DNA from: Ilex aquifolium
Taxonomy: Eukaryota; Streptophyta; Magnoliopsida; Aquifoliales; Aquifoliaceae
NCBI GenBank assembly: GCA_951799425.1
Contig: OX637393.1
Location: 22,795,744-22,859,743, forward strand
Length of the DNA: 64,000 bases
Reading direction: 5' to 3'
Made by a program: the position numbers and the translations under genes. Shown piece by piece: positions 19,677 to 59,424 of this stretch; position 1 is the first letter of the stretch; each line of letters opens with the position of its first letter. Under the pieces are notes generated by a model that saw only the letters and a list, made by a program, of their open reading frames with translations, searched no databases and was not told the DNA's origin.

Positions 19677-19689
19677 TGGTATCAGAGCC
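19677..19689 (+). other. G: primer binding site (initiator Met tRNA)
   Basis: TGGTATCAGAGCC, 4 bp after the LTR end. It is complementary to the 3' end of plant initiator Met tRNA, the usual primer of Tekay elements. Confidence 0.9.
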
Positions 19690-19828
19690 TAGGCTTTAGG
19701 TCTTACATGGGAGCTGTAGGTTATGGATTACCACTAGAGACTTCGGTTTAGGGTGAAGGAAATTGTTATGTTAAATATTGTGTATGCCTTGTGCTTAAAT
19801 CAAGACATCCGACATATCACTTTAGTTT

Positions 19829-24382: not shown

Positions 24383-24407
24383 GGTAAGTTTCGAGGACGA
24401 AACTTTC

Positions 24408-24420
24408 TTTAAGGGGGGTG
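24408..24420 (+). other. G: polypurine tract
   Basis: TTTAAGGGGGGTG lies 3 bp before the 3' LTR start at 24424. Confidence 0.85.
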
Positions 24421-24423
24421 GAT

Positions 24424-28465: not shown

Positions 28466-28492
28466 TTTCAAATTTCAAGACGAAGTCAATCA

Positions 28493-29190
28493 ATAATTAG
28501 ATTATTGAACAAATTTGGAATTTGAAAAATTGTTCCTTGAGTAAATGTAAGTTTCCTCCAACAAAGATTGGCACTAAAACTCTCATGGGTGCTTACTCAT
28601 CTCCACTATTCATGTCAAGCACTAAAATGTGAACTCAATCCGCAAATTGTCAAAATTACACATTCAAGGTGCACTTAAGGTTGAGTTCAAAAGTAAACCC
28701 ATATGTGATACTCGAGCATAGGATGAACTTCTATAATGCTCTCATGTATTCAAGGTTCAATGCAAAGATCAACATATCAACAACCCCAAACACTCCAAAT
28801 AAGGGAATACAGATCAACATTCAGATATTTTCACAAAAAAATTTCAAAATTTTCACATAATTTGTAACTTTGTAAACAAAAATTTGTATGATATGTGAAA
28901 GGTGAATTTTCACCTCAAAAATTGGTATTATCAACAAAAATTTCCATAAACATTGGTGTATCATACAAATGGTGCACCTCACCCCCCAACTTGATTCATG
29001 CATTGTCCTCAATGCAACAAAAAAGATATGATATGCAATGAAGGACTGTAAAAAGATGAGTAGAGTTAGAGAACACCTCGCACTTAAGCTTTGACAAAAA
29101 CACCAATATCTGCAACTAAGAAAACAACACTATACGCAATGATAAAGTAAGTAAACATAACCAGTTAAAGTAAGTAAAAACGATTGTACA
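28493..29190 (-). other. E: non-coding stretch after integrase
   Basis: Homologous in reverse to A at about 4540-5215. No gene recognised. Contains the internal polypurine-tract copy at 28980-28992. Confidence 0.7.
28980..28992 (-). other. E: internal polypurine-tract copy
   Basis: AAGTTGGGGGGTG on the minus strand, identical to A 4695-4707 and to A's terminal tract. Confidence 0.8.
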
Positions 29191-29209
29191 CTAAAAACTA
29201 TATGAACAG

Positions 29210-30185
29210 TTAATCCTCCAACAAGTCCGGGTAGACCAGACCCACCAATTCTTTCTCCACCCCTTGACCTTCAAATCTCTTAAAGAATGGCTTAAGTCTT
29301 TGGCCATTGACCTTGAATGTCTTGCCATCTTCGGGGTTTGTGACTTCCACAGCTCCATTGGGGTAGGCCACCTTGACAAGATAGGGGTCATCCCAACAGG
29401 ATCGGAGTTTCCCTTGAAAGATCGAGAGACGAGAATTGTATAAGAGCACTTTTTATCCGGGCTCAAATGATTTCCTTACAATGGATTTGTCGTGAAAGAT
29501 CTTAGCCCTCTCTTTTGAAATTTTAGAGCTCTCATACGCATCTCTTCGAATCTCTTCCAATTCATTCATTTTAAGCTTCCTATTCTCTCCAGACATTCTC
29601 ATGTTAAAGTTCAAGGTCTTGATGGCCCAATAGGCTTTGTGCTCCATCTCAAACGGCAAATGGCAAGCCTTGCCATAGACTAGCCTGTAGGGTGACATGC
29701 CTAGAATTGTCTTATAAGCAGTGCAGTAAGCCCAAAGAGCATCGGTCAACCTAAATGACCAATCTTTCCTATTGGGATTCACCATTTTCTCTAGGATGTT
29801 CTTGATTTCCCTATTGGCCAACTCGGCTTGACCATTGGTTTGTGGGTAATAAACGGTGGAAATCTTGTGTGTGACGCCATACTTATGCATCAAAGATGCA
29901 AATGACCTATTACAGAAATGCGACCCATCGTCGCTTATCATAGCACGAGCCATCACAAACCTCGAAAAATGTTCTCCTTGAGAAACTTGACCACGACCCG
30001 GGGGTCATTATCTTGGTCGGAATAACCTCCACCCATTTGGACACATAGTCCACTGCCAGCAGAGTGTACAGGTAGCCAAACGACACGAGGAAGGGACCCA
30101 TGAAGTCAATGCCCCAACAGTTGAATATCTCAATTACCAACACAAGGGATAAGGGCATCATGTTCCTACGGGTCACACTACCCAA
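29210..30185 (-). pseudogene. E: integrase remnant
   Basis: Landmarks on the minus strand: [62 protein letters not shown], and a C-terminal part like that of A. Zinc-finger remains lie just upstream. Broken copy. Confidence 0.88.
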
Positions 30186-30418
30186 TCTCTGGCACCTATC
30201 ACATTCTTTTCAGAAAGAGTCACAATCTTTTATCAAAGAAGGCCAATAAAAACCTAACTAAAATCTTTGCCAAAGTCTTCTTAGAAGAGAAGTGGCCACC
30301 GCACGCTTCCAAATGGAAAAATGCAAGGACTTCCCGTTGTTCATTTTCTGGTACGCATCTCCTCATGACTTGGTCAGGGCAGTACTTGAGCAGGTACGAG
30401 TTATTGAAGTAAAGTACT

Positions 30419-31948
30419 TCACATCCACCATAAACCTCCGTCTATCCTCCGGGCTCCAATGCGGCAGTATTTGTCCTGTACAAGATTATTGCATATGTTA
30501 GCATACCAAGGACAAACAGAATGAATAGACAATAAATGCTCATCAGGGATAGGAATGTTCTCATCGGCATCTTGCACCACAAGTCGGGATAAATGATCCG
30601 CTACCACGTTCTCAACTCCCTTTTTGTCTTTGATCGTCAAGTCAAATTCTTGAAGGAGGAGTATCCACCTAATGAGTCTCGGTTTTGCATCCTGCTTAGA
30701 AAACAGATACTTCAAAGCAGAGTGATCAGTGTAGACTATAATAGGTGAACCAATGATGCAAAACCAAAATTTATCCAATGCAAATACTACGGCTAGCAAC
30801 TCTTTTTCAGGGGTGGTGTAATTCATTTGTGCTTCATTAAGATTTTTACTAGTATAGTATATTACTTAAGGTCTCTTGTGCACAGCGCCGACCGCGTAAT
30901 CACTCGTGTCGCACATAAGCTCAAAAGGTAAGTCCCACTTGGGTGGTCGTATAATCAGAGGTGTAGTGAGCATGCTTTTGAGTTTTTTAAATGATGCCTC
31001 ACAATTATCCGACCACACGAATGGGACATCTTTGGAAAGCAAGTTGGTCAAGGGTCGAGTCAATGCATTGAAGTCATTTATAAAGCGACGATAAAAACCA
31101 GCATGGCCAAGAAACGACCTGATATCATTGATGAACTTTGGAGTGCAGAGGTTAGAAATTGCATCCACCTTTGATTTTTCAACTTCGATCCCCTTTGCCG
31201 AGACGATGTGCCCGAGCACAATTCCTTGTGTCACCATGAAGTGGCACTTCTCCCAGTTGAGGACCAAGTTCTTCTCCTTGCACCTCTCAAGTAATACTCT
31301 CTCTAAGTTTTCCAAACATCCTCCAAATGAATCCCCGAACACTGAGAAGTCATCCATAAAAACTTCCACAATTTTCTCCACCATATCGCTGAAAATCCCC
31401 ATAACGCATCTTTGAAAAGTCTCTGGGGCATTACACAACCCAAATGGCATACGTCGGTAGGCAAAGGTACTGTAGGGGAAAGTGAAAGTGGTCTTCTCCT
31501 GATCCTCCATTATGATCTCAATTTGATTATAGCCGGAGTATCCATCCAGGAAGCAATAGAACTAGTGTCCGGCTACTCTCTCCAATACTTGGTATAGTAA
31601 TGGCAAAGGGAAGTGGTCCTTTCTTGTGCAAGAGTTGATCTTCCGATAGTCAATACACACTCTTCATCCGATGACTGCTCTTGTCGGAATCAACTCATTG
31701 TCCTCATTTGCAACCACTGTGACTTCCAATTTCTTTGGCACTACTTGAGTGGGACTCACCCATTTACTGTCGACAATCGGGAAGATGATGCCCACATCAA
31801 GTAGCTTGAGTACCTCATCCCTCACCATATCCTTCATAATCGGATTCAACCTTTTTTGTGGTTGTCGGGACGGCTTGGAGTCTTCTTCAAGGTAGATGTA
31901 GTGTGTGCAAATAAGGGGCTTATCCCCTCGATGTCGACAATTTTCCAC
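30419..31948 (-). pseudogene. E: reverse transcriptase and RNase H remnant
   Basis: Contains [46 protein letters not shown], and an RNase H part with [14 protein letters not shown]. Collinear with A 1692-3086. Broken copy. Confidence 0.88.
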
Positions 31949-33423
31949 CCAATTGCTCCCTTGTGCCTCATCAACACTTTCAAGAGATCCTCTTCTTGCT
32001 TCGCCTCCAAAGTTGAGCTAATCACCACCGGAAATGTCTCATGTTCCCCCAAGAATACATATATAAGGTTGGATGGTAATGGCTTCAACTCCAAGATGTG
32101 TATTTGCACATTCGATGGAAAGATATTCTTGTCTTGGTGTGGAAGCTTCTCAAATGTGGGGGCCCATTTTTCTACCCCTTTCATGCTCTCCGGCTCCTCT
32201 TGATGTTCAATCTCCTCTCCCCCAAACTCCAGGGTGCTCCATAACTCCAATTGATCCTTGACCAATGTGTCAATTCTATTTACTTCATGCACTTTTTCAT
32301 CATCCCCCGGTTGTTTGCTCAAATTGAAAACATTGAGATCCATTATCATGTTCCTGAATGCAAGCTTCATAAGACCGTTCCTGCAATTAATCACAACATT
32401 AAATGTAGCAAGAAAAGGTCTATCTAATATGATGGGAATTTGTGAACAAGGGTTAGCAACCGGGTGGGTGTCAAGTACAATAAAATCAACATGGAAATAG
32501 AAATTGTCCACTTGGACTAAGACATCCTCGACTACTCCCCAGGGTGTTTTGACGCTTCGGTCTGCCAATTGAAGAGTGATTGGAGTTGGTTTTAACTCTT
32601 CAAGTTGGAGTTGTTGGTACACCGAATAGGGGAGGAGGTTGACACTCGCCCCCAAATCAAGAAGTGCTTGCTCCACCAGGCAATTCCCTATTATGATGGC
32701 AATGGTAGGGCATCCGGGGTCTTTGAACTTTGGCGATGTGTTTGTCCTCAAGATTGAGCTCACTTGCTCGGTGAGGAATGCCTTCTTGTGAACATTCAAT
32801 TTTCTCTTCACTGTGCACAAGTCTTTCAAGATCTTGGCACATGACAGGATTTGCTTTATGGCATCGAGGAGTGGGATGTTGATCTTAACCTGCTTGAACA
32901 TCTCAATGATATAAGAATAGTTAGCCACCTTCATGGGTGGCTTCAAACAATTTGGGAAAGGGGCCGGAATGAAGGATGCATAAACACTTTCATCAACATT
33001 TTTTTCTTTTTCACTCACCTCACCCCCCTTGGAGTCACCCTTAGTCTCTTTCTCTTTTGGTAATGTGGCTTTGGGTGAGAATTTTTGCACAATGATTTTA
33101 TCTATTTGTTTGCCACTCCGAAGGGTGGTGACCGCCTTGAGTTGCTCACAACTCTCTTTAGTGGATTCGGACGACTCAATGACATGTTGGCCTCTAGGGT
33201 TTTCTTGGGGTTGACCGGGGAATTTCCCCTTCTCTTGTTGTGATGTCCCTATGGAATTGGTCAAATTCGTGAGTTGAGTCCGAATGTCATTAAAAGTTGC
33301 AGCATTGCCGATTAGACGGGGAGTATTGAGAGCTAGACGATTAACCTTGACCTTGGTATTGATTTTGCTTAGGAGGCATGGGAGGTGAATATGCATTAGA
33401 ACCGTGAGGAGTGGGGTTCTCAT
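31846..33423 (-). pseudogene. E: gag tail and protease
   Basis: A long open stretch (525 codons) covering the gag tail, the linker with VTTLRSGKQIDK, and the retropepsin region (ALLDLGASVNLLPYSVYQQL, FYFHVDFIVLDTHPVANP). It is the best-preserved coding part of E and aligns with A 474-1500 and with the second half of the H gag-protease ORF. Confidence 0.85.
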
Positions 33424-34615
33424 TCTTCCAACTAAAGTTCGGGTGATTACTCCAACCCGGATTGTAAGTGTTTGAGTGCGAGGAGAATGATTGCCTCATT
33501 TGGTTAAAGGCATTGACTTGCTCATGGTACACTTCTTTAAGTGCCGGAATGTTAGGGCACTCCGATATGGAATGCTCAACACTCTCACAGATAGAGCAAA
33601 ACTCCTCGGTCTTTGAGACATTAGACACCTCATGTCTCATATTGACCTCTAAACTCTCCACCTTCTGAGACAATTTAGTGATTTTAGAAAGCAAGTATTC
33701 CCCGTCCCTTAAATAATACATCCCTCCCCCGCTTGGTTAACTACTACCAGGAGAAGACCTCGGTACATCGGTGGGATCCGTAATATCCCAAGATTGTGGA
33801 TTTTGTGCCAATGTACTAAAGTAGTCTAGGGCCTCATCGGGATCCTTGTTTAAGAACTTCTCGTTGCACATCATGTCAATGAATTGTCGATGGCCTGGTG
33901 TAATCCCTTCATAGAAGAAACTCACCAATTGTCATGATTCAAAACCATGATGTGGAATGGATTGTAACAATTCTTTGTAGCGATCTCAATAGTGATAAAA
34001 TTGCTCATTGGGCTTTTTCAAAAAAATTTGGATTTGCTTTTTAAGAGCGGTGGTTTTAGGCACGGGAAAAAATTTGTTCAAAAACTCGGAAAGCATTTGT
34101 GCCCAAGAGGTTATGGATCGAGGCCTCAAGGAATTCAACCAATTTTTGGCTTTGTCCTTAAGGAAAAAGGGAAACAATTTCAAGCGAGCTATGTCTTCCA
34201 TAGCATGATTAGTGAGGAAGGTTGCAACTATGTCCTCGAATTCCTTAATATGCAAGTAAGGATTCTCTCTTTCAATTATGTGGAATGTAGGAAGTAGTTG
34301 CAACATTCCTGGCTTAACTAGGAAGGCATGAGCTTGGACCGGTAAGAGAATGCATGAGGGAGTGGTGCTCCGAGTGGGATGGAGATAATCCCGCATTGAC
34401 CTCGCCGGAGGATCAATGTGGATATTGTTCCCTTCATTCCGAGGAGGGAAATGCATTCTAGGGTTTTGCATTCCCCCACCCCTTGGGACATTAGCCTCCT
34501 CATTCTCAAAATTATCACCGGCATCCTTGGGTGGGTCTTGGTCAATATTCATGTTGGGGTCTAAGGGTTGCCTAACCAATCTATTTTGGTCGTCCCATCC
34601 CCACATGCAAAACAA
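33341..34615 (-). pseudogene. E: gag remnant
   Basis: Athila gag landmarks: RDYLHPTRSTTPSCILLP, LPTFHIIERENPYLHIKEFE, RLKLFPFFLKDKAKNWLNSL, and a knuckle-like CSICESVEHSISECP. The homologous H ORF has REYLHPTRTNVPSC at the same place. Broken copy. Confidence 0.88.
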
Positions 34616-34742
34616 TATCTACAATTGAAAAACAAGTAAAAAAAAGTATATACAAGGAGCAACGTACCTCAGCCCATAATGAGAATTCACGAGACTTACC
34701 TCTGTTGTCCGAAAATCACCTTCTTGATTCAACGCTTTGCCT

Positions 34743-34760
34743 TCCCCAGCAACGGTGCCA
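34743..34760 (-). other. E: primer binding site (tRNA-Asp type)
   Basis: On the minus strand TGGCACCGTTGCTGGGGA, 4 bp from the 5' LTR. It is close to the 3' end complement of plant tRNA-Asp, usual for Athila. Confidence 0.85.
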
Positions 34761-34764
34761 AAAA

Positions 34765-35382
34765 TGCTTGACTTATTCCGTCGACCCTAATCTCCGAACA
34801 TCATCCCGTAATATGTGTATGGCTTATACGGATAGGTGAGTGTCATTCCCCCTCAGAATGATGCAAGAAATGGGGTAAACGGGTGTGTGAATGAAACGTG
34901 TGTGTGTGTGTGTGTACAAAAGTGCTCCCCAAGCGCAGAGAGACTTTCGAGTATCATGTTTTACTTGGAATTGGTATTCCAAGGTCGTCTCCTCAGGGAA
35001 GGAAGGTGAATTATGTTGAAGGTGATTTTGGTAAAAAAAGAAAAGTGTAAAAATATTTGAGTTTGAGTTTTGGTGAGTTGTGTTCTTGATGAAAATGAAA
35101 TGGAAACAAGTGTTGGCTAATCCAAAGAGGTCATTCCAATGGGAATGCCAAATCAACTCAAGACATTCTTCCAATGGTGCATAGAGGTTTGATGGATTCT
35201 TAGGAAGCGCGAGACTTAAACGAAGGTGAGGATTCAAGCATACCCCGTGACAAGTCTACGGTGTATCAAAAACTTACAACCACGTCCACACTCAACCTAG
35301 TTAAACCAAATTGTCTTACACTACGAGGAGGAATGAAAAAGAGTGGATTTAGCATACCCAAGAGGAATTCTCCCTTGGATTA
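34765..35382 (-). mobile_element. E: 5' LTR, inner piece
   Basis: TGCTTGACTTATTCCGTCGA onward to the F insertion. The last five bases, GATTA (35378-35382), are F's left target duplication. Contains a GT microsatellite at about 34898-34915. Confidence 0.9.
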
Positions 35383-48408: not shown

Positions 48409-48545
48409 GATTAGCCAACTTAAAACTTAGCTACTCATATTTAATGCAAGAACATACTTGAATTAGAGAGACATTGTGAAGAAATGAAGATTGGAACTTA
48501 AATTAATGCAAGAAAAGTTAAACTAGGAAGTAGTGCATTGAATAC
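48409..48545 (-). mobile_element. E: 5' LTR, middle piece
   Basis: Begins with F's right duplication GATTA (48409-48413), continues TTAGCCAACTT as in 28395, and ends with AATAC (48541-48545), the left duplication of H. Confidence 0.88.
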
Positions 48546-48987
48546 TGATTCGCACTTTTTAGTGTGTCAGAATTATATTATTATATTACACCCAAGTATA
48601 AGTGGTCGAATTGTAGTTTTCTTGGTTTTTGAGTCCAAGTATCGATCCCACAGAGAGTTTTAGTAATTAAAATAAAATAAAATAAATAAAATAAAAATAA
48701 AGCAATAAAAAGGTTGTTTGGAGTAGTTTGATGTTTGATTGCTTGTGGTGTGAGCTTAGTCTAATGACGGTGTTAAAAAATTGATTCTAAAACAACAGGT
48801 GGAATAAAGGTGCAGAAATAAAATGCGTAAGTAAAACAGATTAATGACAGAAATATAAAAGATATCCTTCAGTTCAAGGATCCCACATGGTTTACATCGG
48901 TCTTGTTACGGAATTGCTACCTCACATCAGTTAACTTCCATTTTACTGGCAAGCTAACCGGCAGGTCTGATGTATATATATATTATA

Positions 48988-49324
48988 ACACAGCTGCTTC
49001 TTAGGCTACACTGGGTATATTTATGTCAAATGATTAACCCAAGCAAACCAGAAGGACAAGCCATTCATGAGGAATACTTGAGTTATTCACTTGATCTCAT
49101 GATTGCAAATACGTATATATATATAATAAACCATAACACAGCTGCTTCTTAGGCTACACCGGTGGTAATATATAGCACAGTTGCTTCTTAGGCTACACTG
49201 GGCTTAGATGTTCCAATTGATTAATTCAAGTAAAATCCGCAGGTGGTACAGACTATCTTTCGGCGACTTGTCAGGTCAACCGGTGGTAGTTAATCATAAT
49301 ACAGCTGCTTCTTAGGCTACACTG
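48988..49324. repeat. H LTR: interspersed repeat around CAGCTGCTTCTTAGGCTACA
   Basis: Copies near 48988, 49136, 49175 and 49299 with nearly identical cores of about 26 bp. The set recurs in the other LTR near 57997-58333. Confidence 0.9.
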
Positions 49325-49424
49325 TATTTAGATATATCACCCAGAAAGTGAAGTTACTTGAGCGGCATACTTGAATTATTCAATAGGTTATCTTGTAATA
49401 TTTATATATATATATATATATAGA

Positions 49425-49698
49425 CAGTAGAACTTCCTCAGCGTTCCAGTGTAGGACTAGCCATACTGAGAGGATCACCGGGGTTATTCCAGCAGGCAAT
49501 ATTATTATATATATAGTAATACCAGGCGTCAGTGGAACTTCCTCAGCATTTCGGTGGAAACGCCGGGGTCATTCTAGCTGGCCCGTCTTGTATATACATA
49601 ATACTACCAGGCGTCAGTGGAACTTCCTCAGCATTCCAGTGGAGGATTAACCATACCGGTAGGAACGCCGGGGTCATTCTAGCTGGCCCGTCTTGTAT
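49425..49698. repeat. H LTR: tandem AGTGGAACTTCCTCAGC units
   Basis: Three units here, two in the 5' LTR (about 58433-58600). Each ends in a variant of GCCGGGGTCATTCTAGC. The extra unit explains the roughly 107-bp length difference between the LTRs. Confidence 0.88.
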
Positions 49699-50154
49699 AT
49701 ATAATAAACGTATACATAAAATATCAGCAATTCCAAAAACAGATCAATATTATACATGTGTTCCCCTCGAACCGGAGGATATACGGAACTACTCACGCTC
49801 CATTGCTATAGACAAGCAAGGAGAGCTAGCAGTTGTCATTACAGCAAAAAGGAAAGTGCGGAATTTAAATGTCTTTCGCAGGGAACGATTGAAACACAGC
49901 CACTCTTATAATCGGTTAAGATGAAAAAGTGGCGGCAGTTCAACTATTCGAATTGAAAGCTATACAAAAACTATAAAAGTACAGGACTTAGGACTGAAAG
50001 ATAACACGGACCGGAGTGTATTTTCTCTTCTCTTTTCTTTCTCTCTTTTTCTCTCTTCAGAATTCAGAACTTCAGAATCTCTCTCTCAGAACTCTCTGTT
50101 TCTTTCTTTGTTTCTGCCTCAGTCCGGCCGTAGGAAATGCAGAAGAAGCTGCAG

Positions 50155-50162
50155 TATTTATA
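50155..50162 (-). promoter_or_regulatory. TATA box in H 3' LTR
   Basis: TATAAATA on the minus strand. The matching box in the functional 5' LTR is at 59057-59064. It is followed, in the sense of transcription, by a CT-rich leader. Confidence 0.7.
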
Positions 50163-50213
50163 GGCAAATGAAGGCAAGTGGGGGAAGAGATCAGGGTAAG
50201 TCTGACAGGGGTG

Positions 50214-50247
50214 ACCGTCCGGACGGCAGTCCCACCGTCCGGACGGT
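50214..50247. repeat. CCGTCCGGACGG palindrome pair in H 3' LTR
   Basis: ACCGTCCGGACGG at 50214 and ACCGTCCGGACGGT at 50234, 20 bp apart. TTTGCTGGAAACGG follows. The pair lies about 50 bp upstream of the TATA box on the minus strand. Confidence 0.95.
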
Positions 50248-50517
50248 GGTGCTTTGCTGGAAACGGCCACTTGCATGCATGCTGAGTCTTCACGTTGGGT
50301 AATTACACTTTGGCCTTTATTCTTTGCATTTCCTTGACATTGCTCCCTTGGTCTTGCGTTATTTCGGCATTTGTCCTGCAACTTTCAGATAAAATGTTAT
50401 AACTAGTATTATTCCCGCACAAACCCTAATTCACTCTAACTACTAATTTTTAGTGCGTTTATTATACTAATTCAAGTTTTTTGATTTTTTAATTTATACA
50501 CAATTTAGGGTTAATCA

Positions 50518-52338
50518 CACCCCCTAACTTAAACTTTACTAGTCCCTAGTAAAATTAAAAAGAAAATATAATACAAGTAGGGGTAAAATCATTTTCGTAG
50601 ATTTTTGTACGATTGCATTTAGCATATGCAATAAGCCTTTAAACCCCTAGGTGATTCCTAGTGGACGAGTTGTGTCTCGTGAAGGTTTCCAGTGAAGCTA
50701 CCTACAAACTTCAGTAATTAGGAATGCATATTTCATATTTTTCACATGCATGGTTAAGATGATATTTCTTCTGTCTTGCTAGAATGCTTCCTTTTCTGAT
50801 CACCTTGAGAGAATCATATGTTGGGTGTAGTATTATCTATATATTTTTATGAAAACTTGTGTGTGTGTGTAGTGATGTTTTTATTTTCAAAAATCACTTG
50901 GAAAAAATATTACCCTCTTTCATGGTAGTCTTGATGTCAATCCTTCCCTGGAATACACTCAGTAAGAATAGCACACATGTTATAGTGACTGTTCTCATAA
51001 TTTTACATGTGATTAGAATATTGATAACAAAACAAATTATTGCACATGTAATAGAAAGGAGCGGTTATTTTAAATGGACTGGAAATTGACATAATCTCAT
51101 GAAAGAATATTAACACTGTATTAAATATATTATTAACATTTTCCTTTTTAGATTGCTAGAATGGATGCAAATATATGATTTCTGGAATCAAAAAGGACTT
51201 TTATTAGGTTGTATTGTGGCCATTGGGTTTAGAGTTTAAGAAACGACGTTTATGGGGTTCAAAAGCTACCTTTTGGCATTCCTCTTAAAACTTTATGTAT
51301 TCTTTCCATTTTTTTTTTTTTTTCACTTTCTTGACTTTCTCTTTTTTCATTTTTCACTTTCTTGGCGAGTGCATTTTATGCTCCATCTCGCTTTTTGTTG
51401 AACGGGTGCGTTTTACGGTCCATCCCGTTCTCAACTCATGCCTTTTTTTTTTTTTGGTGAGTGCATTTTATGCTCCATCTCACTTTTTTGGTATCCTGTT
51501 GAAAAAGAGGGTGCAAGAAAATTATGTAGCACAGGTGGGTTTAATATATTTTTATCTGGCTCGGGTCTTTTTCAGGTTTCATGAAAAGAATTTATACTAT
51601 TTTAGGCTCAAACATGGTTGACTAATGATATAATTTTGTAAAAGAAATGGTTAAGGCTCAAAATTAATCAAACATGGCCTAAGATCATTTTCCAGAAATC
51701 CTATATTTGTATTTTTTCTAGATAAATAATTAAGGGCAATGTATATAATATATTTCAAGACGTGCTAATCAAAGCAAAAATATAATGAGATTATTCAAAG
51801 AAAAGTTACCGCTGAATCGAAGATTCGTAGTTGAGTAGATGTAGCATTTCTCTCCAAGGAAGAATGGCTCTAATTCTGCATTTGGTTTTTTACATCTCCA
51901 CTATATATAGAAAGAGTGTAGTATTTTGCATGGTTTTCAAAAATAAAGACATCTGTTTGTGCTTCTAAGGTTAAGTTCGAATAAAAATATTGAGATAACG
52001 TACAGCTAAAATATGACAGTCTCATGAGATCAGATTGAGAGTATTTTCGCAAGGCATTAGAATATAATCCTAATCTAACTGTGAATTATATGAAATATAC
52101 TTCCTACTTTAGCAATGTATGCTCTCATTTTAACAAAGACAATTAAAACACACTGAAAATTAAAACATATTAGTTCAAACATATATAAACATATAAGCAA
52201 AATTTAACTAAGTTCAAATCACACAAACATAAAAAAAACATAAAACATAACTTTAAGTTTTAAGTGCAGAAATTTAAAGTGCATAAAATAAAACGGTGAG
52301 TGAAAGAAAGCAAAGTTTTAAGTAGAATCCCCTGATCT
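50518..52338 (-). other. H: 3' non-coding region
   Basis: A polypurine tract (AAGTTAGGGGGTG on the minus strand, about 50518-50531) abuts the LTR. No credible ORF lies in the remaining 1.8 kb. A group of three hairpins is at 51365-51483. Confidence 0.75.
51365..51483 (-). other. H: three hairpins with a conserved 17-nt loop and covarying stems
   Basis: Hairpin 1 (51365-51391) has stem GCGAG/CTCGC. Hairpin 2 (51397-51435) has stem GTTGAACGGG/CCCGTTC-TC-AAC with one bulge. Hairpin 3 (51457-51483) has stem GTGAG/CTCAC. All three loops are 17 nt: two are identical (TGCATTTTATGCTCCAT) and the third is TGCGTTTTACGGTCCAT. Stems change on both sides together while the loop is kept, and the loop itself has an inner GCAT/ATGC-type pairing with one compensatory change. 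The hairpins are separated by T-rich runs. Function unknown. Confidence 0.6.
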
Positions 52339-53835
52339 TCAAGAAGTTGAAGGACCTCCTCCAAAATGCTGTCTCAGTAGCTCCCACATTTTTGTTTGGT
52401 TTTTCTCATAGTCTTCCATTTTTCGGCTCATTTGAGTGATAGTGTCTTCCAATCCTAGCAGAATCTGTCTGTCTTTCCTGTCATCCACTGGGATGTATGG
52501 TTGCTCTTCTGGTATCTGCTGTTCGGGTGGAATGAATGCTTCAGGAGGCTGGATTGGTTGTTCTTGTGGTTCAGGTGGTACTCCCTGTTGAGCTGCTGGT
52601 TGTGCATCTGGTTGTATTTCTGGCTGAGCTCCATGGCTTTTTTTTAATGAAGTTTTATCTAATGGCCCATAATGATCCACAGTCTTCCATAGCGGATCAA
52701 TGATCACATCATTATTCCTGCACAGTTGAGATACTAGCATAGCATATGGAAGTGAAGGCTTCTTATCTCCTATAGTCAGGAGCATCTGGTCCATGATCAG
52801 ATTCGGCAAGTCTATGGTATGTCCCACCCCGAAGGCATATAAAAAATAAGCTTGCTCAGTATATATTTGATTTTTCTGGGCTCGAGGTAGCAAGCTATTT
52901 ACTGTGATTAAATTCAAGATGTGGTATGTGTCAGTCAAATCACCCTGCTTAATATACTTATTTGGTCTACCCCAACCAAATTCGGGATTACCGGTAACTT
53001 CTCTTCCTACAATATCCAAATCAGGTAATGTAAGTTCAGTGTATGGATACTGTGGGTTTTCTTCTCTTCGCAGGGGTTGAAAAAAATTGGCTATAACAGC
53101 CGGAGTAACATGAAAAATTTTACCTCGTATGAATGCTCGTATACGTCTTTCTTCCATTATTTGAGCATTACTATAAAATTCACGGACCAAGCAATCATAT
53201 GCAGGGACAGAAAATCTAACATAATCTAACCATCCTCTAACAGCAAGAATTTCCCTTATTCTTATAGCATCGAAATCTTCAAACACAACCGGTCGTTCAA
53301 CAATAACAGTTTTCATAGAAAATTTTGTATCATACCAAACTTGTTGTTCAACATTTTCAAATATCACCTGGTTGAAGATATTCTCGGGTTCTGGTTGCTG
53401 TGGAGGTGCTTGAGGTTGATCTCTTTGTGCCCTCTTGAAGATCTTCTTCCTCTTTGTCTTGAATCCATGTTTTCTTAATTTCTCCTCAGATTTTCTGTTT
53501 CGAGTGATTTCAATCGGTAAATGTGTTCTAAATGTGATGGGTAAGAAAATAACCGGAAGAAATTTGACTGAAATTGGTTGGGTATAGGAGATTTGAGGGT
53601 TTGGAGTTGTAGAAATTCGGCTGGCCGAATGTTTTTCTGGTACAGAATGGGTTGGACTGATCGGCTGCATGGAGAACAGTTTAAATATTAGGAGCCACCG
53701 TCCAGACGGTGGGAGTGCCGTCCGGACGGTGCCAATTCTCGGGTTCCAGTTTTTTCCTTTGTGTTTTGCTTGAATTTTCCCTGCAATGTGATTCTTTGAT
53801 TTCCTGCAATACACAAAATTTTCATATATATTCAT
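52339..53835 (-). CDS. H: Athila third ORF (plant transposon protein-like)
   Basis: 498 codons, open. The first 55 codons run through the palindrome pair at 53697-53730, so the Met at codon 56 (MQPISPTHSVPE) is a likelier start. Residues about 113-136 are strongly basic (RKSEEKLRKHGFKTKRKKIF) and could act as a nuclear signal. Residues about 165-390 match the 'putative plant transposon protein' pattern seen in A 7160-7720 (FYSNAQIMEERRIRAFIRG, FLYAFGVGHTIDLPNLIMDQM). Then comes a Pro/Gln-rich linker and a short coiled-coil-like end. No membrane segment or signal peptide. Role unknown; in Athila this ORF sits where env would be. Confidence 0.75.
   Translation of the reverse strand: MNIYENFVYCRKSKNHIAGKIQAKHKGKNWNPRIGTVRTALPPSGRWLLIFKLFSMQPISPTHSVPEKHSASRISTTPNPQISYTQPISVKFLPVIFLPITFRTHLPIEITRNRKSEEKLRKHGFKTKRKKIFKRAQRDQPQAPPQQPEPENIFNQVIFENVEQQVWYDTKFSMKTVIVERPVVFEDFDAIRIREILAVRGWLDYVRFSVPAYDCLVREFYSNAQIMEERRIRAFIRGKIFHVTPAVIANFFQPLRREENPQYPYTELTLPDLDIVGREVTGNPEFGWGRPNKYIKQGDLTDTYHILNLITVNSLLPRAQKNQIYTEQAYFLYAFGVGHTIDLPNLIMDQMLLTIGDKKPSLPYAMLVSQLCRNNDVIIDPLWKTVDHYGPLDKTSLKKSHGAQPEIQPDAQPAAQQGVPPEPQEQPIQPPEAFIPPEQQIPEEQPYIPVDDRKDRQILLGLEDTITQMSRKMEDYEKNQTKMWELLRQHFGGGPSTS
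53697..53730. repeat. H: internal CCGTCCGGACGG pair
   Basis: CCGTCCAGACGG at 53698 and CCGTCCGGACGG at 53718, 20 bp apart as in the LTR. The intervening text is also nearly the same, but inverted relative to the LTR pair. GGTTCCAG follows. Confidence 0.92.
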
Positions 53836-54141
53836 TCTACTAAAAATTATTGCTCACCACTCTTTTTTTTTTTTTGTGATAAACAAACTGGGTTTTTAAT
53901 TTTTTTATTTGTTATTGCTTATTTACGGAATTGCCTACTTAAATTATAGTTATTTACATTTATGTACATTTTTAACTATTTACTTTCATACTTATATATA
54001 TATATATAACAACTATACGTAATCTACGTATATACAAACAAGGGTATTTATATTTATACAAATTTATACATGGTTTATTTTTATAACTAGATATATTATA
54101 GTTATGTATATACATAGATACTTCTTCCAAAAGTGTGTTGA

Positions 54142-54552
54142 TTATATTGTGTCAGAGTCAGAACTGTCTGGGTCATTATTACCAGTGACTCGACCAACTT
54201 CATTTCGAACGTACTTGGTTAACATCGGGGTGGAATAGGATGGCGCCTCAGGATAGTCCTTACTCTGCCCATACCTAATCCACCGTAGTCGATCGGACGC
54301 TCGTCCTGAAATTGGTTCCGCACATGGATTATACTGTCTTAAATGTTCTGTTCGACCGCATCTGACACAAGCACCAAGACGATTTGCTCGTCTGTGTTTG
54401 GCATACGGACTTTTTCCGCATAGTGGTCTTGGTTGACTTTCAAATATTTCAAGATTTCTGACTCTTCTGGCTTTTTGCATGATCAGTGCATGAACGTCTT
54501 TTGGAAGATGACGCAGTATAATTACACTTAACCAAAATAGTTTTTCGTCCAT
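54142..54552 (-). CDS. H: carlavirus-like cysteine-rich nucleic-acid-binding protein
   Basis: 136 codons, intact, ATG at 54552. Residues 46-65 show a basic stretch joined to a Cys finger: G-K-S-x-Y-A-K-x-R-R-A, then L-G-x-C-x-R-C, followed by H70 and C77. Carlavirus 11-14 kDa proteins and relatives in other Betaflexiviridae and in allexiviruses share the pattern G-R-S-x-Y-A-R-R-R-R-A, then a CxRC finger. Their N-terminus is likewise a hydrophobic segment (here residues 6-18). In those viruses the gene is the last before the poly(A) tail, and the protein binds nucleic acid; several act as silencing suppressors or enter the nucleus. Here it lies between gag-protease and the third ORF. It is named from memory of the family, without a database search. 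The last 30 residues (acidic, Ser/Asp) are not virus-like. Confidence 0.65.
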   Translation of the reverse strand: MDEKLFWLSVIILRHLPKDVHALIMQKARRVRNLEIFESQPRPLCGKSPYAKHRRANRLGACVRCGRTEHLRQYNPCAEPISGRASDRLRWIRYGQSKDYPEAPSYSTPMLTKYVRNEVGRVTGNNDPDSSDSDTI

Positions 54553-54881
54553 TTTTTTTTTTTTTAATATAATATAAAAGACTCTCTATCCGGTTCTTTA
54601 ACGTCTGCCAGTCACAAAGACAAACAAAATTTTTTAAATCATGATTACTATTTTAAACTCATAAAGTAAACTCACACGCCTATCTCCCCAACTTAATTTA
54701 AATATTATCCTCACTCTATAAGATGAAAGTAGAAAATTGCTAATTAGGTCTTGCAGCGAGAGATATTTATAGTATAAGATTTTAATATAAAAGACAAATA
54801 AAGAAACTATACAAAAGACATAAAAACATAAAACAAAGAAAATTTTAACTACTATATACAAGAAGTGCATTAGAGGATAGA
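54553..54881 (-). other. H: spacer between gag-protease and the virus-like ORF
   Basis: About 330 bp, AT-rich, no credible gene. On the minus strand a run of about 14-15 A lies directly before the ATG at 54552. Confidence 0.6.
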
Positions 54882-57383
54882 TCAATCGGGCTTAAGTTCC
54901 CAAGTAGAGTTTCTTACATTCCCTGATACTTTCGGCGAAGAATTTAACAAATCAGCATAAAATTGTATCTCAGGATTTCCATTATCAACAACAGAATTAA
55001 TTAAACAGACTTGTAGAAGGTCAGAATAAGAAGAGGTGTTAATTTTCTCCTCTACAATCTTATCAATTTCATCTACCTCACAAATTTCTTCCTCCTCACC
55101 TGGGTGCTTTATCACATTAAAGATGTTCAATTCACTGGTCATATTTCCAAATGAAAGCTTCATGACTCCATTCCTACAATTTATCAATGCATTTGATGTA
55201 GCTAGGAATGGTCTACCTAGAATAAGAGGTATGTATTGAGATGCATACATCTGACAACTTGGTTCCGTGTCTATAACAATAAAATCTGCTGGAAAATAGA
55301 ATTGATCCACTTGGACAATAACATCTTCCACAATTCCTCTTGGAATTTTTATTGATCGGTCTGCTAATTGTAGTTTAATATTGGAAGGTTTTAACTCACT
55401 TAGTCCTAGTTGTGTATAGACTGAATATGACATTAAATTACAACTGGATCCAAGATCTAACAGAGCTTGTTCAATTTGAAAATTTCCAATAAGACATGAA
55501 ACTGTAGGGCTACCCGGATCTTTGTACTTAAGAAGTGTATCATGTTGTATTATATTTACTTGTTCAGTTGCAAATGCTTTCTTTGGTACATTAGTTCTTC
55601 TTTTTATTGTGCAAAGATCTTTTAGGAATTTAGCATAAACTGGAACTCTTTTTATTGCATCTAATAATGGAATATTAATCTTTACCTGTTTAAATAGCTC
55701 GAGAATATCAGATTGATCTTTTTCAGTTTGAAGTTGCTTGACTCTTTGAGGGAAAGGTAAAGGGATAGGATATGGCGGATCTTTTTCACTTTGTACTCCT
55801 GGTTGCTTTTTGATTAAAGGTTCAGATTCAAGTGGTTCGTTTACAGGAATTGACTCACGTATTTTCTTTGAAATCTTAGGTTTGATGGTTTTATTTATGA
55901 TTTTCCCACTTCTCAGCGTTGTAATAGATTGTACTTGGCTTGGGGAAGGATCAGAAGTCACAGAATTAATTTGATTTTGATTCTGTGGAGGTTTTGGTTG
56001 GGAGGGAAATTTTCCTTTTTCTGGTATACTCAAGGACTGGGTCAACTTTGCAAGATGACTCTTAATATCTTCAATACTCTGGGAAGTTTGAGCTTTAAAA
56101 TCATTAAATGCTTGAGTTGTTTGAGTATTAAAACTCATTTGACTTTGAATAAATTGATTCATAGTATCTTCCAGAGCTCTTCTTTGAGGAGGTTGATAAG
56201 GTTGGTACTGTTGTTGATTTTGTGGCTGTGGTGGACCTTGTGTTTGATTTGTAGGTTGTGTATTTCTCCAACTAAAATTCGGATGATTTCTCCATCCTGG
56301 ATTGTAAGTTTCAGAATATGGATTTGAATATGGTTTATTATAAGTTGGAACAGCATTTGATTGTTCAATTAAAACTTCTTTAAAGGCAGGTATAGTTGGA
56401 CATTCCCCAGCAGGATGTCCTGACAACGCACAAATTTCACACACTTGATCAGTAGAGGTTACAACAGATACTTGTTTAAGTTTTTTCATTTCTAAGGCTT
56501 CTAGTTTTCGAGATAAACTAGCCATTTTAGCTCTTAGATCATCATCTTCTTTTAATACATATTTTCCTCTTTCAGATGTAGATGGCTTATTTTCTATTAT
56601 GTTAGACGAAGTCGAGTCCCACATTTGGGAACTTTCCGAAATAGTATCGAAGAATTGGAATGCTTCTTCGGGTCTTTTATTCATGAACTCCCCCTGTGCC
56701 ATCATTTCAACAAACTGTCGCATTGCAGATGGGAGTGCATCATAAAAGAATCCGACTAAGGTCCAATCTTCGAATGCATGATGTGGACAGGCTTGGAGAA
56801 GATCTTTGAATCTTTCCCAGCATTGATAAAAAGTTTCATTTTCTTTTACAGAAAAGTTCATGATTTGACGTCTTAACGTGTTAGTACGATGTATAGGAAA
56901 GAACTTTTTAAAGAACTCAGTCTGTAAAGTTTGCCAATTTGTGATGGAGTTGGCTCTTAAGGAGTTAAACCATAGTTTAGCTTTATCTTTTAATGAAAAA
57001 GGAAAAAGTTTTAATTTAATCATTTCAGAACTATCTTGCAAAGTTCCACAGACTTCTTCAAATTCTTTCATATGAACATAAGGATTTTCATCTTCCAAAC
57101 CATGGAACTGTGGTAGTAGTTGTATTGTTCCTGGCTTGATATTAATATTTGGAGCGTCTGTTGGAAAAGCAAAACATGATGGAACATTAGTTCTAGTAGG
57201 ATGTAAATATTCTCTTAACGGTCTAGTATTTTGAACTATTTCCTGTTCTCTAGCCTCTTCCTCCCTAGGTTCGTTTTGAGCCATACTTAATTCAAACGAT
57301 TCTTGTGTAGGTGCAGATGAAGAAGATGAGGAAGATGAAGGAGTTGACTGATTTACATAACCTACTGATGAATGAACAGACAT
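54882..57383 (-). CDS. H: gag-protease
   Basis: 833 codons, open. A Ser-rich start (residues 15-25) is followed by Athila gag landmarks at about residues 55-270: REYLHPTRTNVPSC, LPQFHGLEDENPYVHMKEFE, KLKLFPFSLKDKAKLWFNSL, FFYDALPSAMRQFVEMM. A knuckle-like CEICALSGHPAGEC lies near 315-330. A Gln/Pro-rich linker follows, and then a retropepsin from about residue 600 (LLDLGSSCNLMSYSVY near 640; FYFPADFIVIDTEPSCQMYA; PLILGRPFLATSNALINC). The ORF ends after the protease with no reverse transcriptase in any frame downstream. The product should form particles and process itself, while polymerase and integrase would have to come from a relative. Confidence 0.9.
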   Translation of the reverse strand: MSVHSSVGYVNQSTPSSSSSSSSAPTQESFELSMAQNEPREEEAREQEIVQNTRPLREYLHPTRTNVPSCFAFPTDAPNINIKPGTIQLLPQFHGLEDENPYVHMKEFEEVCGTLQDSSEMIKLKLFPFSLKDKAKLWFNSLRANSITNWQTLQTEFFKKFFPIHRTNTLRRQIMNFSVKENETFYQCWERFKDLLQACPHHAFEDWTLVGFFYDALPSAMRQFVEMMAQGEFMNKRPEEAFQFFDTISESSQMWDSTSSNIIENKPSTSERGKYVLKEDDDLRAKMASLSRKLEALEMKKLKQVSVVTSTDQVCEICALSGHPAGECPTIPAFKEVLIEQSNAVPTYNKPYSNPYSETYNPGWRNHPNFSWRNTQPTNQTQGPPQPQNQQQYQPYQPPQRRALEDTMNQFIQSQMSFNTQTTQAFNDFKAQTSQSIEDIKSHLAKLTQSLSIPEKGKFPSQPKPPQNQNQINSVTSDPSPSQVQSITTLRSGKIINKTIKPKISKKIRESIPVNEPLESEPLIKKQPGVQSEKDPPYPIPLPFPQRVKQLQTEKDQSDILELFKQVKINIPLLDAIKRVPVYAKFLKDLCTIKRRTNVPKKAFATEQVNIIQHDTLLKYKDPGSPTVSCLIGNFQIEQALLDLGSSCNLMSYSVYTQLGLSELKPSNIKLQLADRSIKIPRGIVEDVIVQVDQFYFPADFIVIDTEPSCQMYASQYIPLILGRPFLATSNALINCRNGVMKLSFGNMTSELNIFNVIKHPGEEEEICEVDEIDKIVEEKINTSSYSDLLQVCLINSVVDNGNPEIQFYADLLNSSPKVSGNVRNSTWELKPD

Positions 57384-57424
57384 AGACTATTAAAAACAAA
57401 CTATAAACATTTATAACAAACAAA

Positions 57425-57516
57425 CAAATAAAATTTTTTTTTTTTTATTTTTTTATTTTTTTTATTTTTTTATTTTTTTATTTTTTTATTTTTTTATTTT
57501 TTTATTTTTTTTTTTT
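57425..57516 (-). repeat. H: A-rich leader with 7-8 nt period
   Basis: On the minus strand, repeated runs of six to eight A broken by single T, between the primer site and the gag start. Confidence 0.9.
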
Positions 57517-57530
57517 CCAATTACCTTAAC

Positions 57531-57548
57531 TCCCCGGCAACGGCGCCA
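57531..57548 (-). other. H: primer binding site (tRNA-Asp)
   Basis: TGGCGCCGTTGCCGGGGA on the minus strand, a perfect match to the complement of the plant tRNA-Asp 3' end, 6 bp from the 5' LTR. Confidence 0.92.
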
Positions 57549-57554
57549 AAAACT

Positions 57555-59419
57555 TGATTCGCACTTTTTAGTGTGTCAGAATTATATTATTATATTACAC
57601 CCAAGTATAAGTGGTCGAATTGTAGTTTTCTTGGTTTCTGAGTCCAAGTATCGATCCCACAGAGAGTTTTAGTAATTAAAATAAAATAAAATAAATAAAA
57701 TAAAAATAAAGCAATAAAAAGGTTGTTTGGAGTAGTTTGATGTTTGATTGCTTGTGGTGTGAGCTTAGTCTAATGACGGTGTTAAAAACTTGATTCTAAA
57801 ACAACAGGTGGAATAAAGGTGCAGAAATAAAATGCGTAAGTAAAACAGATTAATGACAGAAATATAAAAGATATCCTTCAGTTCAAGGATCCCACATGGT
57901 TTACATCGGTCTTGTTACGGAATTGCTACCTCACATCAGTTAACTTCCATTTTACTGGCAAGCTAACCGGCAGGTCTGATGTATATATATATTATAACAC
58001 AGCTGCTTCTTAGGCTACACTGGGTATATTTATGTCAAATGATTAACCCAAGCAAACCAGAAGGACAAGCCATTCATGAGGAATACTTGAGTTATTCACT
58101 TGATCTCATGATTGCAAATACGTATATATATATAATAAACCATAACACAGCTGCTTCTTAGGCTACACCGGTGGTAATATATAGCACAGTTGCTTCTTAG
58201 GCTACACTGGGCTTAGATGTTCCAATTGATTAATTCAAGTAAAATCCGCAGGTGGTACAGACTATCTTTCGGCGACTTGTCAGGTCAACCGGTGGTAGTT
58301 AATCATAATACAGCTGCTTCTTAGGCTACACTGTATTTAGATATATCACCCAGAAAGTGAAGTTACTTGAGCGGCATACTTGAATTATTCAATAGGTTAT
58401 CTTGTAATATTTATATATATATATATATAGACAGTAGAACTTCCTCAGCGTTCCAGTGTAGGACTAGCCATACTGAGAGGATCACCGGGGTTATTCCAGC
58501 AGGCAATATTATTATATATATAGTAATACCAGGCGTCAGTGGAACTTCCTCAGCATTTCGGTGGAAACGCCGGGGTCATTCTAGCTGGCCCGTCTTGTAT
58601 ATATAATAAACGTATACATAAAACATCAGCAATTCCAAAAACAGATCAATATTATACATGTGTTCCCCTCGAACCGGAGGATATACGGAACTACTCACGC
58701 TCCATTGCTATAGACAAGCAAGGAGAGCTAGCAGTTGTCATTACAGCAAAAAGGAAAGTGCGGAATTTAAATGTCTTTCGCAGGGAACGATTGAAACACA
58801 GCCACTCTTATAATCGGTTAAGATGAAAAAGTGGCGGCAGTTCAACTATTCGAATTGAAAGCTATACAAAAACTATAAAAGTACAGGACTTAGGACTGAA
58901 AGATAACACGGACCGGAGTGTATTTTCTCTTCTCTTTTCTTTCTCTCTTTTTCTCTCTTCAGAATTCAGAACTTCAGAATCTCTCTCTCAGAACTCTCTG
59001 TTTCTTTCTTTGTTTCTGCCTCAGTCCGGCCGTAGGAAATGCAGAAGAAGCTGCAGTATTTATAGGCAAATGAAGGCAAGTGGGGGAAGAGATCAGGGTA
59101 AGTCTGACAGGGGTGACCGTCCGGACGGCAGTCCCACCGTCCGGACGGTGGTGCTTTGCTGGAAACGGCCACTTGCATGCATGCTGAGTCTTCACGTTGG
59201 GTAATTACACTTTGGCCTTTATTCTTTGCATTTCCTTGACATTGCTCCCTTGGTCTTGCGTTATTTCGGCATTTGTCCTGCAACTTTCAGATAAAATGTT
59301 ATAACTAGTATTATTCCCGCACAAACCCTAATTCACTCTAACTACTAATTTTTAGTGCGTTTATTATACTAATTCAAGTTTTTTGATTTTTTAATTTATA
59401 CACAATTTAGGGTTAATCA
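57555..59419 (-). mobile_element. H: 5' LTR
   Basis: 1,865 bp, almost identical to 48546-50517 apart from one tandem unit, a small TA-length change and about three substitutions. TATA box (minus) at 59057-59064. CCGTCCGGACGG pair at 59116-59149. Confidence 0.92.
59116..59149. repeat. CCGTCCGGACGG palindrome pair in H 5' LTR
   Basis: Same pair as at 50214-50247, 20 bp apart, about 52 bp upstream of the minus-strand TATA box. Confidence 0.95.
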
Positions 59420-59424
59420 AATAC
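59420..59424. repeat. H: target site duplication, right
   Basis: AATAC, matching 48541-48545. Confidence 0.93.

What the first reader, a model, noticed from the sequence alone, without database searches (positions are those of the whole stretch)
54142..54552. A retrotransposon carrying a plant RNA-virus-type nucleic-acid-binding protein
Inside the young element H is an intact 136-residue ORF whose residues 46-65 fit the basic-plus-Cys signature of carlavirus and related cysteine-rich proteins (G-K-S-x-Y-A-K-x-R-R-A, then C-x-R-C). Several such viral proteins are silencing suppressors or nuclear regulators. A retroelement that took up such a gene could lower host silencing of its own RNA. The ORF and motif are seen directly, family membership is from recalled knowledge, and the role is inference. 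I know of no described case but could not search.
Basis: partly seen in the sequence, partly recalled or inferred. Interest (0 to 1): 0.87.

Follow-up and report, generated by a model that had tools for sequence, protein, structure and literature searches.

The report
Retrotransposon family with virus-type RNA-binding gene
A family of plant jumping genes carries, and keeps in working form, a small gene of the kind that plant RNA viruses use to bind nucleic acids and blunt RNA silencing, which suggests that mobile DNA in plants may use a virus-type tool against host silencing.

Summary
The ORF is real, on the minus strand (54552-54142). It scores above Pfam's cut-offs for Viral_NABP (PF05515, 42.6 bits, cut-off 23) and Carla_C4 (26.9, cut-off 20.9). 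With the finger kept and flanks shuffled, PF05515 fell to 17.2-22.3 bits in 9 of 9 controls, so homology reaches beyond the finger. Element H is an Athila-type LTR retrotransposon (TSD AATAC, LTR divergence 0.0016) with gag-protease and the usual Athila 3' ORF but no RT or integrase found. The host genome (800 Mb) gave 4089 first-look candidates; 150 were scored and all match. Integrase lies upstream of the gene in 17 of 30 copies, gag-protease in 11. So it is a standing accessory gene of a pol-bearing lineage; H is a pol-deleted derivative that kept it. A second subfamily has two tandem copies (3 of 3 stretches read). Between groups dN/dS is 0.11-0.32 at dS 0.74-2.08, on samples ranked by similarity to the gene. 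A conserved splice-acceptor-like block precedes the start codon. The finger (C-X2-C-X4-H-X6-C) differs from the carlavirus one. Most likely role: a nucleic-acid-binding protein that counters silencing of element RNA; this is inferred. Direction of transfer is unresolved.

The parts
48541..48545 (.). target-site duplication AATAC, left copy
48546..50517 (-). 3' LTR of element H (element reads on the minus strand), 1972 bp
50518..50529 (-). polypurine tract (minus strand AGTTAGGGGGTG) beside the 3' LTR
   Evidence: sequence shown; function from general knowledge
52339..53835 (-). 498-aa ORF with PF20167 Transposase_32, the usual Athila 3' accessory ORF
   Evidence: E 1.2e-25; link of PF20167 to Athila ORF1 read in PMC11728184 (passages)
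54142..54552 (-). NABP ORF, 136 aa, homologous to PF05515 Viral_NABP
54385..54417 (-). residues 46-56, basic motif GKSxYAKxRRA
   Evidence: conserved
54322..54369 (-). residues 62-77, putative zinc finger C-X2-C-X4-H-X6-C
54592..54629 (-). conserved block with a splice-acceptor-like CAG (last base 54605), 39 nt before the start codon; its strict pattern found in 54 of 69 copies
   Evidence: function inferred
54707..54708 (-). joint left by the loss of RT-RNaseH-integrase: spacer homology with integrase-bearing copies starts at 54707 in 7 of 7 tested
54882..57383 (-). 833-aa gag-protease ORF (Retrotrans_gag, zinc knuckle, Athila-type protease), ending before RT
57531..57548 (-). primer-binding site, 18 of 18 with the 3' end of plant tRNA-Asp (tRNA end recalled)
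57555..59419 (-). 5' LTR of element H, 1865 bp
59420..59424 (.). target-site duplication AATAC, right copy

Best explanation
The ORF is an accessory gene of an Athila-type (Ty3/gypsy) plant retrotransposon family. It encodes a small basic zinc-finger protein homologous to the nucleic-acid-binding proteins (NABP, cysteine-rich proteins) of plant flexiviruses. In pol-bearing members it lies between integrase and the Athila 3' ORF; H is a pol-deleted derivative that kept gag-protease, NABP and the 3' ORF and presumably uses RT and integrase from relatives. Shown here: homology, context, many copies with open frames, and a dN/dS well below 1 between groups. Inferred: it is translated from a spliced subgenomic RNA (conserved acceptor-like block before the ATG), binds element RNA or small RNAs through the basic patch and the CCHC finger, and lowers RNA silencing of the element, as viral cysteine-rich proteins do. 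Most likely the gene passed from a flexivirus-like RNA virus into the retroelement, but the direction is not shown.
For: Homology: PF05515 42.6 bits against 17.2-22.3 in 9 of 9 flank shuffles. The viral profile alone finds 150 of 150 scored places over its cut-off in the host genome (3095 first-look candidates) and rings in 0 of 14 control genomes, whose names were not shown. Selection: dN/dS of 49 copies against H 0.03-0.17; between groups that include copies found with the viral profile 0.19-0.32 at dS 0.74-2.08. Context: in L001-L030, integrase upstream within 1.5 kb in 17, gag-PR in 11, neither in 2; a T32 match downstream in 30; gag-PR, RT, RNase H, IN, NABP and T32 in order on C5. Pol-deletion joint: 7 of 7 integrase-type and 6 of 6 gag-type copies tested agree. 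Acceptor-like block in 54 of 69 copies. Function of viral relatives: silencing suppression by PVH CRP (PMC3689765, passages), CVB p12 (PMC7588395, passages), CYVCV CRP (PMC12172455, passages).
Against: No activity of this protein has been measured. Its finger (C-X2-C-X4-H-X6-C) is not the carlavirus C-X2-C-X9-C-X4-C, and its CCHC look would also suit a nucleocapsid-like or packaging protein. The flanks without the finger match no Pfam NABP family. No viral sequence could be laid beside it here, so nearest viral relative and direction of transfer are untested. The structure model is poor (pLDDT 59). The dN/dS samples were ranked by similarity to the NABP or to its profile, which lowers dN; pooled within L031-50 the ratio is 0.31, and within the shallow double-NABP groups 0.68 and 0.43. 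One earlier study, as cited in PMC3689765, found no local suppression by CVB p12, so activity varies among viral relatives. The splice reading has no RNA support.
Confidence: 0.5

Rival explanations
1. NABP is an RNA chaperone or packaging factor, a second nucleocapsid-like protein that helps gag select, dimerise or reverse-transcribe element RNA; silencing is not its target.
For: CCHC-like spacing C-X2-C-X4-H-X6-C; the pol-less H, which must still be packaged, keeps gag and NABP without pol.
Against: Gag has its own zinc knuckle at residue 315; Athila elements in general are not known to need such a protein (general knowledge); viral homologues act as suppressors and regulators in print.
Confidence: 0.25
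2. NABP is a nuclear regulator that switches on the LTR promoter or host genes, as reported for chrysanthemum virus B p12.
For: Basic NLS-like patch conserved; [quoted passage not shown]
Against: No DNA-binding or localisation data; the LTR was not tested for a target motif.
Confidence: 0.15
3. Reverse origin: the gene arose in plant Athila retroelements (or in a third source) and flexiviruses took it up.
For: The family is diverse in this genome (dS up to about 2 between groups), and two deeper PF05515 clades of unknown hosts exist (P0020/21 and P0024-26).
Against: PF05515 is named and described as a viral family, widespread in flexiviruses (general knowledge); no tree with viral rows could be built here.
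Confidence: 0.25
4. Chance or convergent basic-plus-CxxC motif in an otherwise unrelated ORF.
For: The Carla_C4 score is carried by the finger core alone; with the finger masked, neither NABP family matches in 3 of 3 proteins.
Against: Flank shuffles lose 20-25 bits of PF05515 score; a C-terminal I-x-x-G-x-S-K motif is shared with the distant clades, with S or K lost in single rows.
Confidence: 0.04
5. Passenger fragment without function that happens to be intact in one young copy.
For: H is very young.
Against: dN/dS 0.03-0.17 against H and stops in only 3 of 50 copies, two of them two codons before H's own stop.
Confidence: 0.02

Closest known systems
Viral_NABP (PF05515), nucleic-acid-binding proteins of flexiviruses
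   Same: Profile match over the curated cut-off along residues 9-109; basic patch followed by CxxC; small protein.
   Different: Encoded in an LTR retrotransposon family (4089 first-look candidates, 150 scored); CCHC-type ligand set; own N-terminal MDxKLFW block.
Carlavirus cysteine-rich protein (PF01623 Carla_C4; PVH CRP, CVB p12)
   Same: G-K/R-S-x-Y/F-A-K-x-R-R-A then CxxC, over the Pfam cut-off.
   Different: Only that core matches; the PVH finger is C-X2-C-X9-C-X4-C (PMC3689765, passages), here C-X2-C-X4-H-X6-C.
Additional ORFs of plant Ty3/gypsy elements (Athila ORF1/T32, Retand Transposase_28, Ogre PMD, orchid AlkB)
   Same: Extra sense ORF between pol and 3' LTR kept in many copies; AlkB (PMC9289625) is another domain shared with flexiviruses.
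   Different: The 2020 review finds no similarity of antisense extra ORFs to other TEs or viruses (PMC7264820); the orchid AlkB is closest to cellular demethylases; here the homologue is a viral family.
Viral genes captured by retroelements in animals (env of gypsy, paramyxovirus F in rotifer TelKA, nodavirus RdRp in a nematode Bel/Pao element)
   Same: A gene of another virus inside an LTR retrotransposon (PMC5408684, passages; PMC5177903, abstract and Results).
   Different: Plant host; an RNA-binding accessory protein and not env or polymerase; many copies with selection measured.
VANC anti-silencing proteins of VANDAL DNA transposons (recalled, not looked up)
   Same: A transposon-encoded protein thought to counter host silencing.
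   Different: DNA transposon, unrelated protein, acts on DNA methylation.
TR-GAG / LARD non-autonomous elements (recalled)
   Same: H keeps gag but no RT or integrase was found.
   Different: H also keeps NABP and the Athila 3' ORF.

Membership tests
PF05515 Viral_NABP | profile score over the curated cut-off | tested here: met
   42.6 bits against 23; 150 of 150 scored genome places over cut-off
PF05515 Viral_NABP | match not confined to the finger | tested here: met
   9 of 9 flank shuffles drop to 17.2-22.3 bits; but flanks with the finger masked give no match by themselves, and the finger alone gives 16.7 bits
PF05515 Viral_NABP | encoded in a plus-strand RNA virus genome | tested here: not met
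   lies between LTRs with gag-PR
PF05515 Viral_NABP | place in a tree with viral members | not testable with these tools
   no viral rows found: four viral-contig scans without a relative
PF01623 Carla_C4 (carlavirus CRP) | profile score over cut-off | tested here: met
   26.9 bits against 20.9, but 25.8-27.1 with shuffled flanks too
PF01623 Carla_C4 (carlavirus CRP) | finger C-X2-C-X9-C-X4-C as given for PVH | tested here: not met
   C-X2-C-X4-H-X6-C; H70 in 48 and C77 in 49 of 50 copies
Viral suppressors of RNA silencing | suppresses silencing | not testable with these tools
   only by analogy with PMC3689765, PMC7588395, PMC12172455 (passages)
Athila lineage (Ty3/gypsy) | gag-PR homology to Athila-type elements | tested here: met
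   48% (gag) and 52% (protease) identity by blastp to the element at 28-35 kb of the window, itself called Athila-like by recall and by its PF20167-bearing kin
Athila lineage (Ty3/gypsy) | Athila-type 3' ORF (PF20167, related to PF03078) | tested here: met
   E 1.2e-25
Athila lineage (Ty3/gypsy) | PBS for a non-Met tRNA and 5-bp TSD | tested here: met
   tRNA-Asp 18 of 18 (tRNA end recalled), AATAC; non-chromoviruses do not use tRNA-Met (PMC6317226, passages)
Athila lineage (Ty3/gypsy) | RT phylogeny | tested here: inconclusive
   no RT found in H; relatives carry RT pieces 63-78% (L051, L054) and IN 65-72% identical to those of the Athila-like element in the window; no tree built
Autonomous element | own RT and integrase | tested here: not met
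   RT and integrase queries find nothing better than E 0.017 over 35 aa in H's interior

The most novel reading that the evidence does not exclude
A plant retrotransposon lineage took over an RNA-virus silencing suppressor as a permanent accessory gene, expresses it from its own spliced RNA, doubled it in one subfamily, and even its pol-less parasites keep it. This would be an anti-silencing retrotransposon armed with a virus gene.
Probability: 0.35. Interest if true: 0.93.

Novelty: new variant of a known kind. Interest (0 to 1): 0.82.

Why it matters
Extra ORFs of plant retrotransposons have long been an open question because most match nothing known. Here one has a clear homologue with a studied function in RNA viruses. 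That makes it possible to test directly whether plant retrotransposons carry their own silencing suppressors, and it links the gene pools of plant RNA viruses and retroelements. Surveys built on RT as a marker (PMC9289625) would miss RT-less copies such as H, and surveys of extra ORFs of at least 250 codons (PMC6317226) would miss this 136-codon gene altogether.

Tried and rejected
Chance motif: rejected by the flank-shuffle control. Single young passenger: rejected by dN/dS and copy number. H as the taker of the gene: made unlikely, because integrase-bearing relatives carry it. Viral coat-protein remnants beside the ORF: stop-to-stop segments were listed but not searched. No Rfam match in the element at gathering thresholds and no tRNA gene in the window. 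IMG/VR scans gave no relative, plasmids none, prokaryote genome contigs none. No PDB sequence at E up to 1. Two structure models were too poor to use (pLDDT 50 and 59). A NABP-independent sample for dN/dS was asked for, by spacer DNA and by T32 protein, and never answered.

Full report
OBSERVATION. The finding's coordinates hold an intact 136-aa ORF, but on the minus strand. Pfam gives PF05515 Viral_NABP (E 9.1e-11, 42.6 bits, cut-off 23, residues 9-109) and PF01623 Carla_C4 (E 4.7e-6, 26.9 bits, cut-off 20.9, residues 36-68).

IS IT MORE THAN THE FINGER? With residues 43-79 kept and the rest shuffled, PF05515 fell to 17.2-22.3 bits in 9 of 9 shuffles, below its cut-off each time, while Carla_C4 stayed at 25.8-27.1. 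So the Carla_C4 hit is the basic-plus-CxxC core, and the Viral_NABP match runs further. Against this, with the finger masked neither family matches at E up to 10 in 3 of 3 proteins: the flanks add score only when anchored by the finger.

FAMILY IN THE DATABASES. Protein searches gave 3, then 14, then 26 proteins at limits of E 0.1, 1 and 10, on contigs of 508-3026 bases from unknown hosts. Of the 15 rows of alignment A2, 13 match PF05515 and PF01623; the other two are probably the 64-aa pieces P0014 and P0015, which bear no precomputed domain. In the core family C62, C65, H70 and C77 stand in 14, 14, 15 and 15 of 15 rows, a C-X2-C-X4-H-X6-C pattern. Carlavirus PVH has C-X2-C-X9-C-X4-C (PMC3689765, passages). 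Two deeper clades, P0020/21 and P0024-26, also match PF05515 and separate in a protein tree; their hosts are unknown and they may be viral or not. P0012 and P0019 come from contigs of the same length (2941), an early hint of two NABP genes on one contig.

THE ELEMENT. H spans 48546-59419 with TSD AATAC. LTRs of 1972 and 1865 bp differ by 2 transitions, 1 transversion, a 2-bp and a 105-bp gap; the 105 bp repeat the start of the stretch that follows. At 1.3e-8 substitutions per site and year (recalled, a grass value) that is roughly 60,000 years. The PBS fits tRNA-Asp at 18 of 18 (tRNA end recalled). Gag is 48% and protease 52% identical by blastp to an Athila-like element in the same window; its RT and integrase, and two further pol queries, find nothing better than E 0.017 over 35 aa in H's interior. 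PF20167 marks the 3' ORF; PMC11728184 (passages) reports that domain in a sunflower Athila ORF and relates it to Athila ORF1.

COPIES IN THE HOST GENOME. The window lies in an 800-Mb assembly of 103 contigs whose name is not given. A search with the protein gave 4089 first-look candidates; the 150 best were scored and all match at E up to 5.7e-73, 81-100% identity. Of the 80 best rows 73 have no stop inside (hand count of that table); many of the lower 70 rows carry a stop, often with a 135-aa frame. Of the 50 copies aligned, L018 has a stop at residue 67, and L049 and L050 at residue 135, two codons before H's own stop.

TWO ELEMENT TYPES. Of L001-L030, gag-protease lies upstream of NABP within 1.5 kb in 11, Athila-type integrase in 17, and neither in 2 (L005, L007); a T32 match lies downstream in 30 of 30, partial in some. 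On contig C5 two adjoining stretches, searched apart, show gag-PR, RT, RNase H, integrase, NABP and T32 in order. L052 has gag-PR followed at once by a partial integrase, then NABP. In 7 of 7 integrase-type copies tested (of 17), homology to the H spacer begins at the same base (spacer position 175, window 54707), whereas 6 of 6 gag-type copies tested (of 11) share the spacer from its first base. So these gag-type copies seem to descend from one loss of RT-integrase, and NABP was kept through it.

A SECOND SUBFAMILY WITH TWO NABP GENES. Searching the genome with the viral profile PF05515, and not with H, gave 3095 candidates, 150 scored, 150 over the cut-off (43.1-52.6 bits); 0 of 14 unnamed control genomes rang. 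About 106 of the 150 rows have 150-aa frames (hand count). In 3 of 3 longer stretches read (L072, L073, L074) two NABP genes follow the integrase, with starts 1.7-2.5 kb apart. The database relatives P0005, P0006, P0009 and P0016 look like one of these, and P0007, P0008, P0010, P0011 and P0012 like the other (by eye).

SELECTION. Nei-Gojobori: 49 copies against H give dN/dS 0.03-0.17; pooled within L001-30 0.15, within L031-50 0.31, between the two sets dS 0.77, dN 0.087, ratio 0.11. A second run took 30 sequences: groups A (3) and B (17) of the double-NABP elements, 9 H-like (7 of the 50 earlier copies plus L069 and L071), and L070; none was dropped. Between A or B and H-like the ratios are 0.22 and 0.19 at dS near 1.8; between the tandem genes A and B 0.29 at dS 0.74; with L070 0.19-0.32; within H-like 0.18; within B 0.68 and within A 0.43, shallow groups in which many changes are probably post-insertion. 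Comparators from L001-30 against H, using matches of at least 60% identity: gag-PR 0.20 with 2 stops in 3170 codons, T32 0.41 with 25 stops in 9279 codons. Caveat: the samples were ranked by similarity to NABP or to its profile, which favours a low dN for NABP over the comparators; a NABP-independent sample could not be had. The deep comparisons are hard to explain by ranking alone.

EXPRESSION. A block around CAGACGTTAAAGAACC (searched as CAGANGTNAARGARCC) lies before the start codon in 54 of 69 copies (L018 left out beforehand), 28-97 nt away in the 11 printed examples that have it; the 4 printed examples without the strict form show near-matches. It recurs across groups with dS near 1.8. 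It looks like a splice acceptor (T-rich tract, then CAG); in H the CAG ends at 54605. A stricter acceptor scan of H had listed two other TAG sites and not this one. A possible donor AAG/GTAATT follows the PBS in H (sequence). All of this is inference.

COMPOSITION. NABP is 43% GC between spacers of 25.5% and 20.9%, as expected of a constrained coding stretch.

FUNCTION BY ANALOGY. Viral homologues suppress silencing: PVH CRP (PMC3689765); CVB p12, which also activates transcription in the nucleus and whose expression shifted the small-RNA profile from mainly 24-nt to mainly 21-nt species (PMC7588395); CYVCV CRP, on single-stranded triggers only (PMC12172455). Passages of each were read. PMC3689765 also cites a study in which p12 did not suppress local silencing, so activity varies. 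Since 24-nt RNAs silence retrotransposons (general knowledge), a suppressor would pay. Rivals are packaging or chaperone work and nuclear transcription control.

WHAT IS IN PRINT. Ten searches of the held library listed no paper whose title or abstract start reports a flexivirus-type NABP in a plant retrotransposon; two searches listed 20 of 52 and 15 of 68 papers. Subscription papers and preprints are not held, and Steinbauerova 2011 was not read. PMC9289625 (sections 12 and 17, passages) lists non-canonical domains in RT-containing elements of 121 genomes and does not name this one in the text read; its figure and supplements were not seen. PMC7264820 (parts 1-2 of 3) says that antisense extra ORFs resemble neither other TEs nor viruses. 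PMC11963269 (passages) offers an unknown virus as one possible source of Retand ORFs. Animal precedents: PMC5408684 (passages) and PMC5177903 (abstract, Results). PMC3136472 (passages) describes a flexivirus replicase-like sequence in cucumber.

VERDICT. The identity of the gene, its place in a pol-bearing Athila-type lineage and purifying selection on it are well supported. The anti-silencing role is the best guess, at about even odds. Direction of transfer is open.

Noticed in passing
L072, L073, L074 (host genome C1, C14, C8): Athila-type elements with two tandem NABP genes after the integrase, starts 1.7-2.5 kb apart.
   Followed up: partly
P0020, P0021, P0024-P0026 (database proteins, unknown hosts): Two deeper PF05515 clades; P0024-26 lack the histidine of the finger.
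   Followed up: partly
window 50215, 50235, 59117, 59137 and 53698, 53718: Paired palindromes CCGTCCGGACGG in both LTRs recur inverted (36 nt, 94%; one with a changed base) at the start of the T32 ORF.
   Followed up: no
window 49559-49663: The 3' LTR carries 105 bp that the 5' LTR lacks; they repeat the start of the following stretch.
   Followed up: partly
window 17377-25265: Chromovirus (Tekay-like, by recall) element with a 1518-aa open gag-pol frame at 19826-24382.
   Followed up: no
window 27910-35205 and about 512-8178: Two decayed Athila-like elements, the second with its own PF20167 ORF at 7351-8178.
   Followed up: partly
host genome C3:13896189-13898180: Two NABP copies in opposite orientation with starts 1.6 kb apart.
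   Followed up: no
L001-L071, 28-97 nt before NABP in the printed examples: Conserved noncoding block that could be a splice acceptor or another RNA signal.
   Followed up: partly
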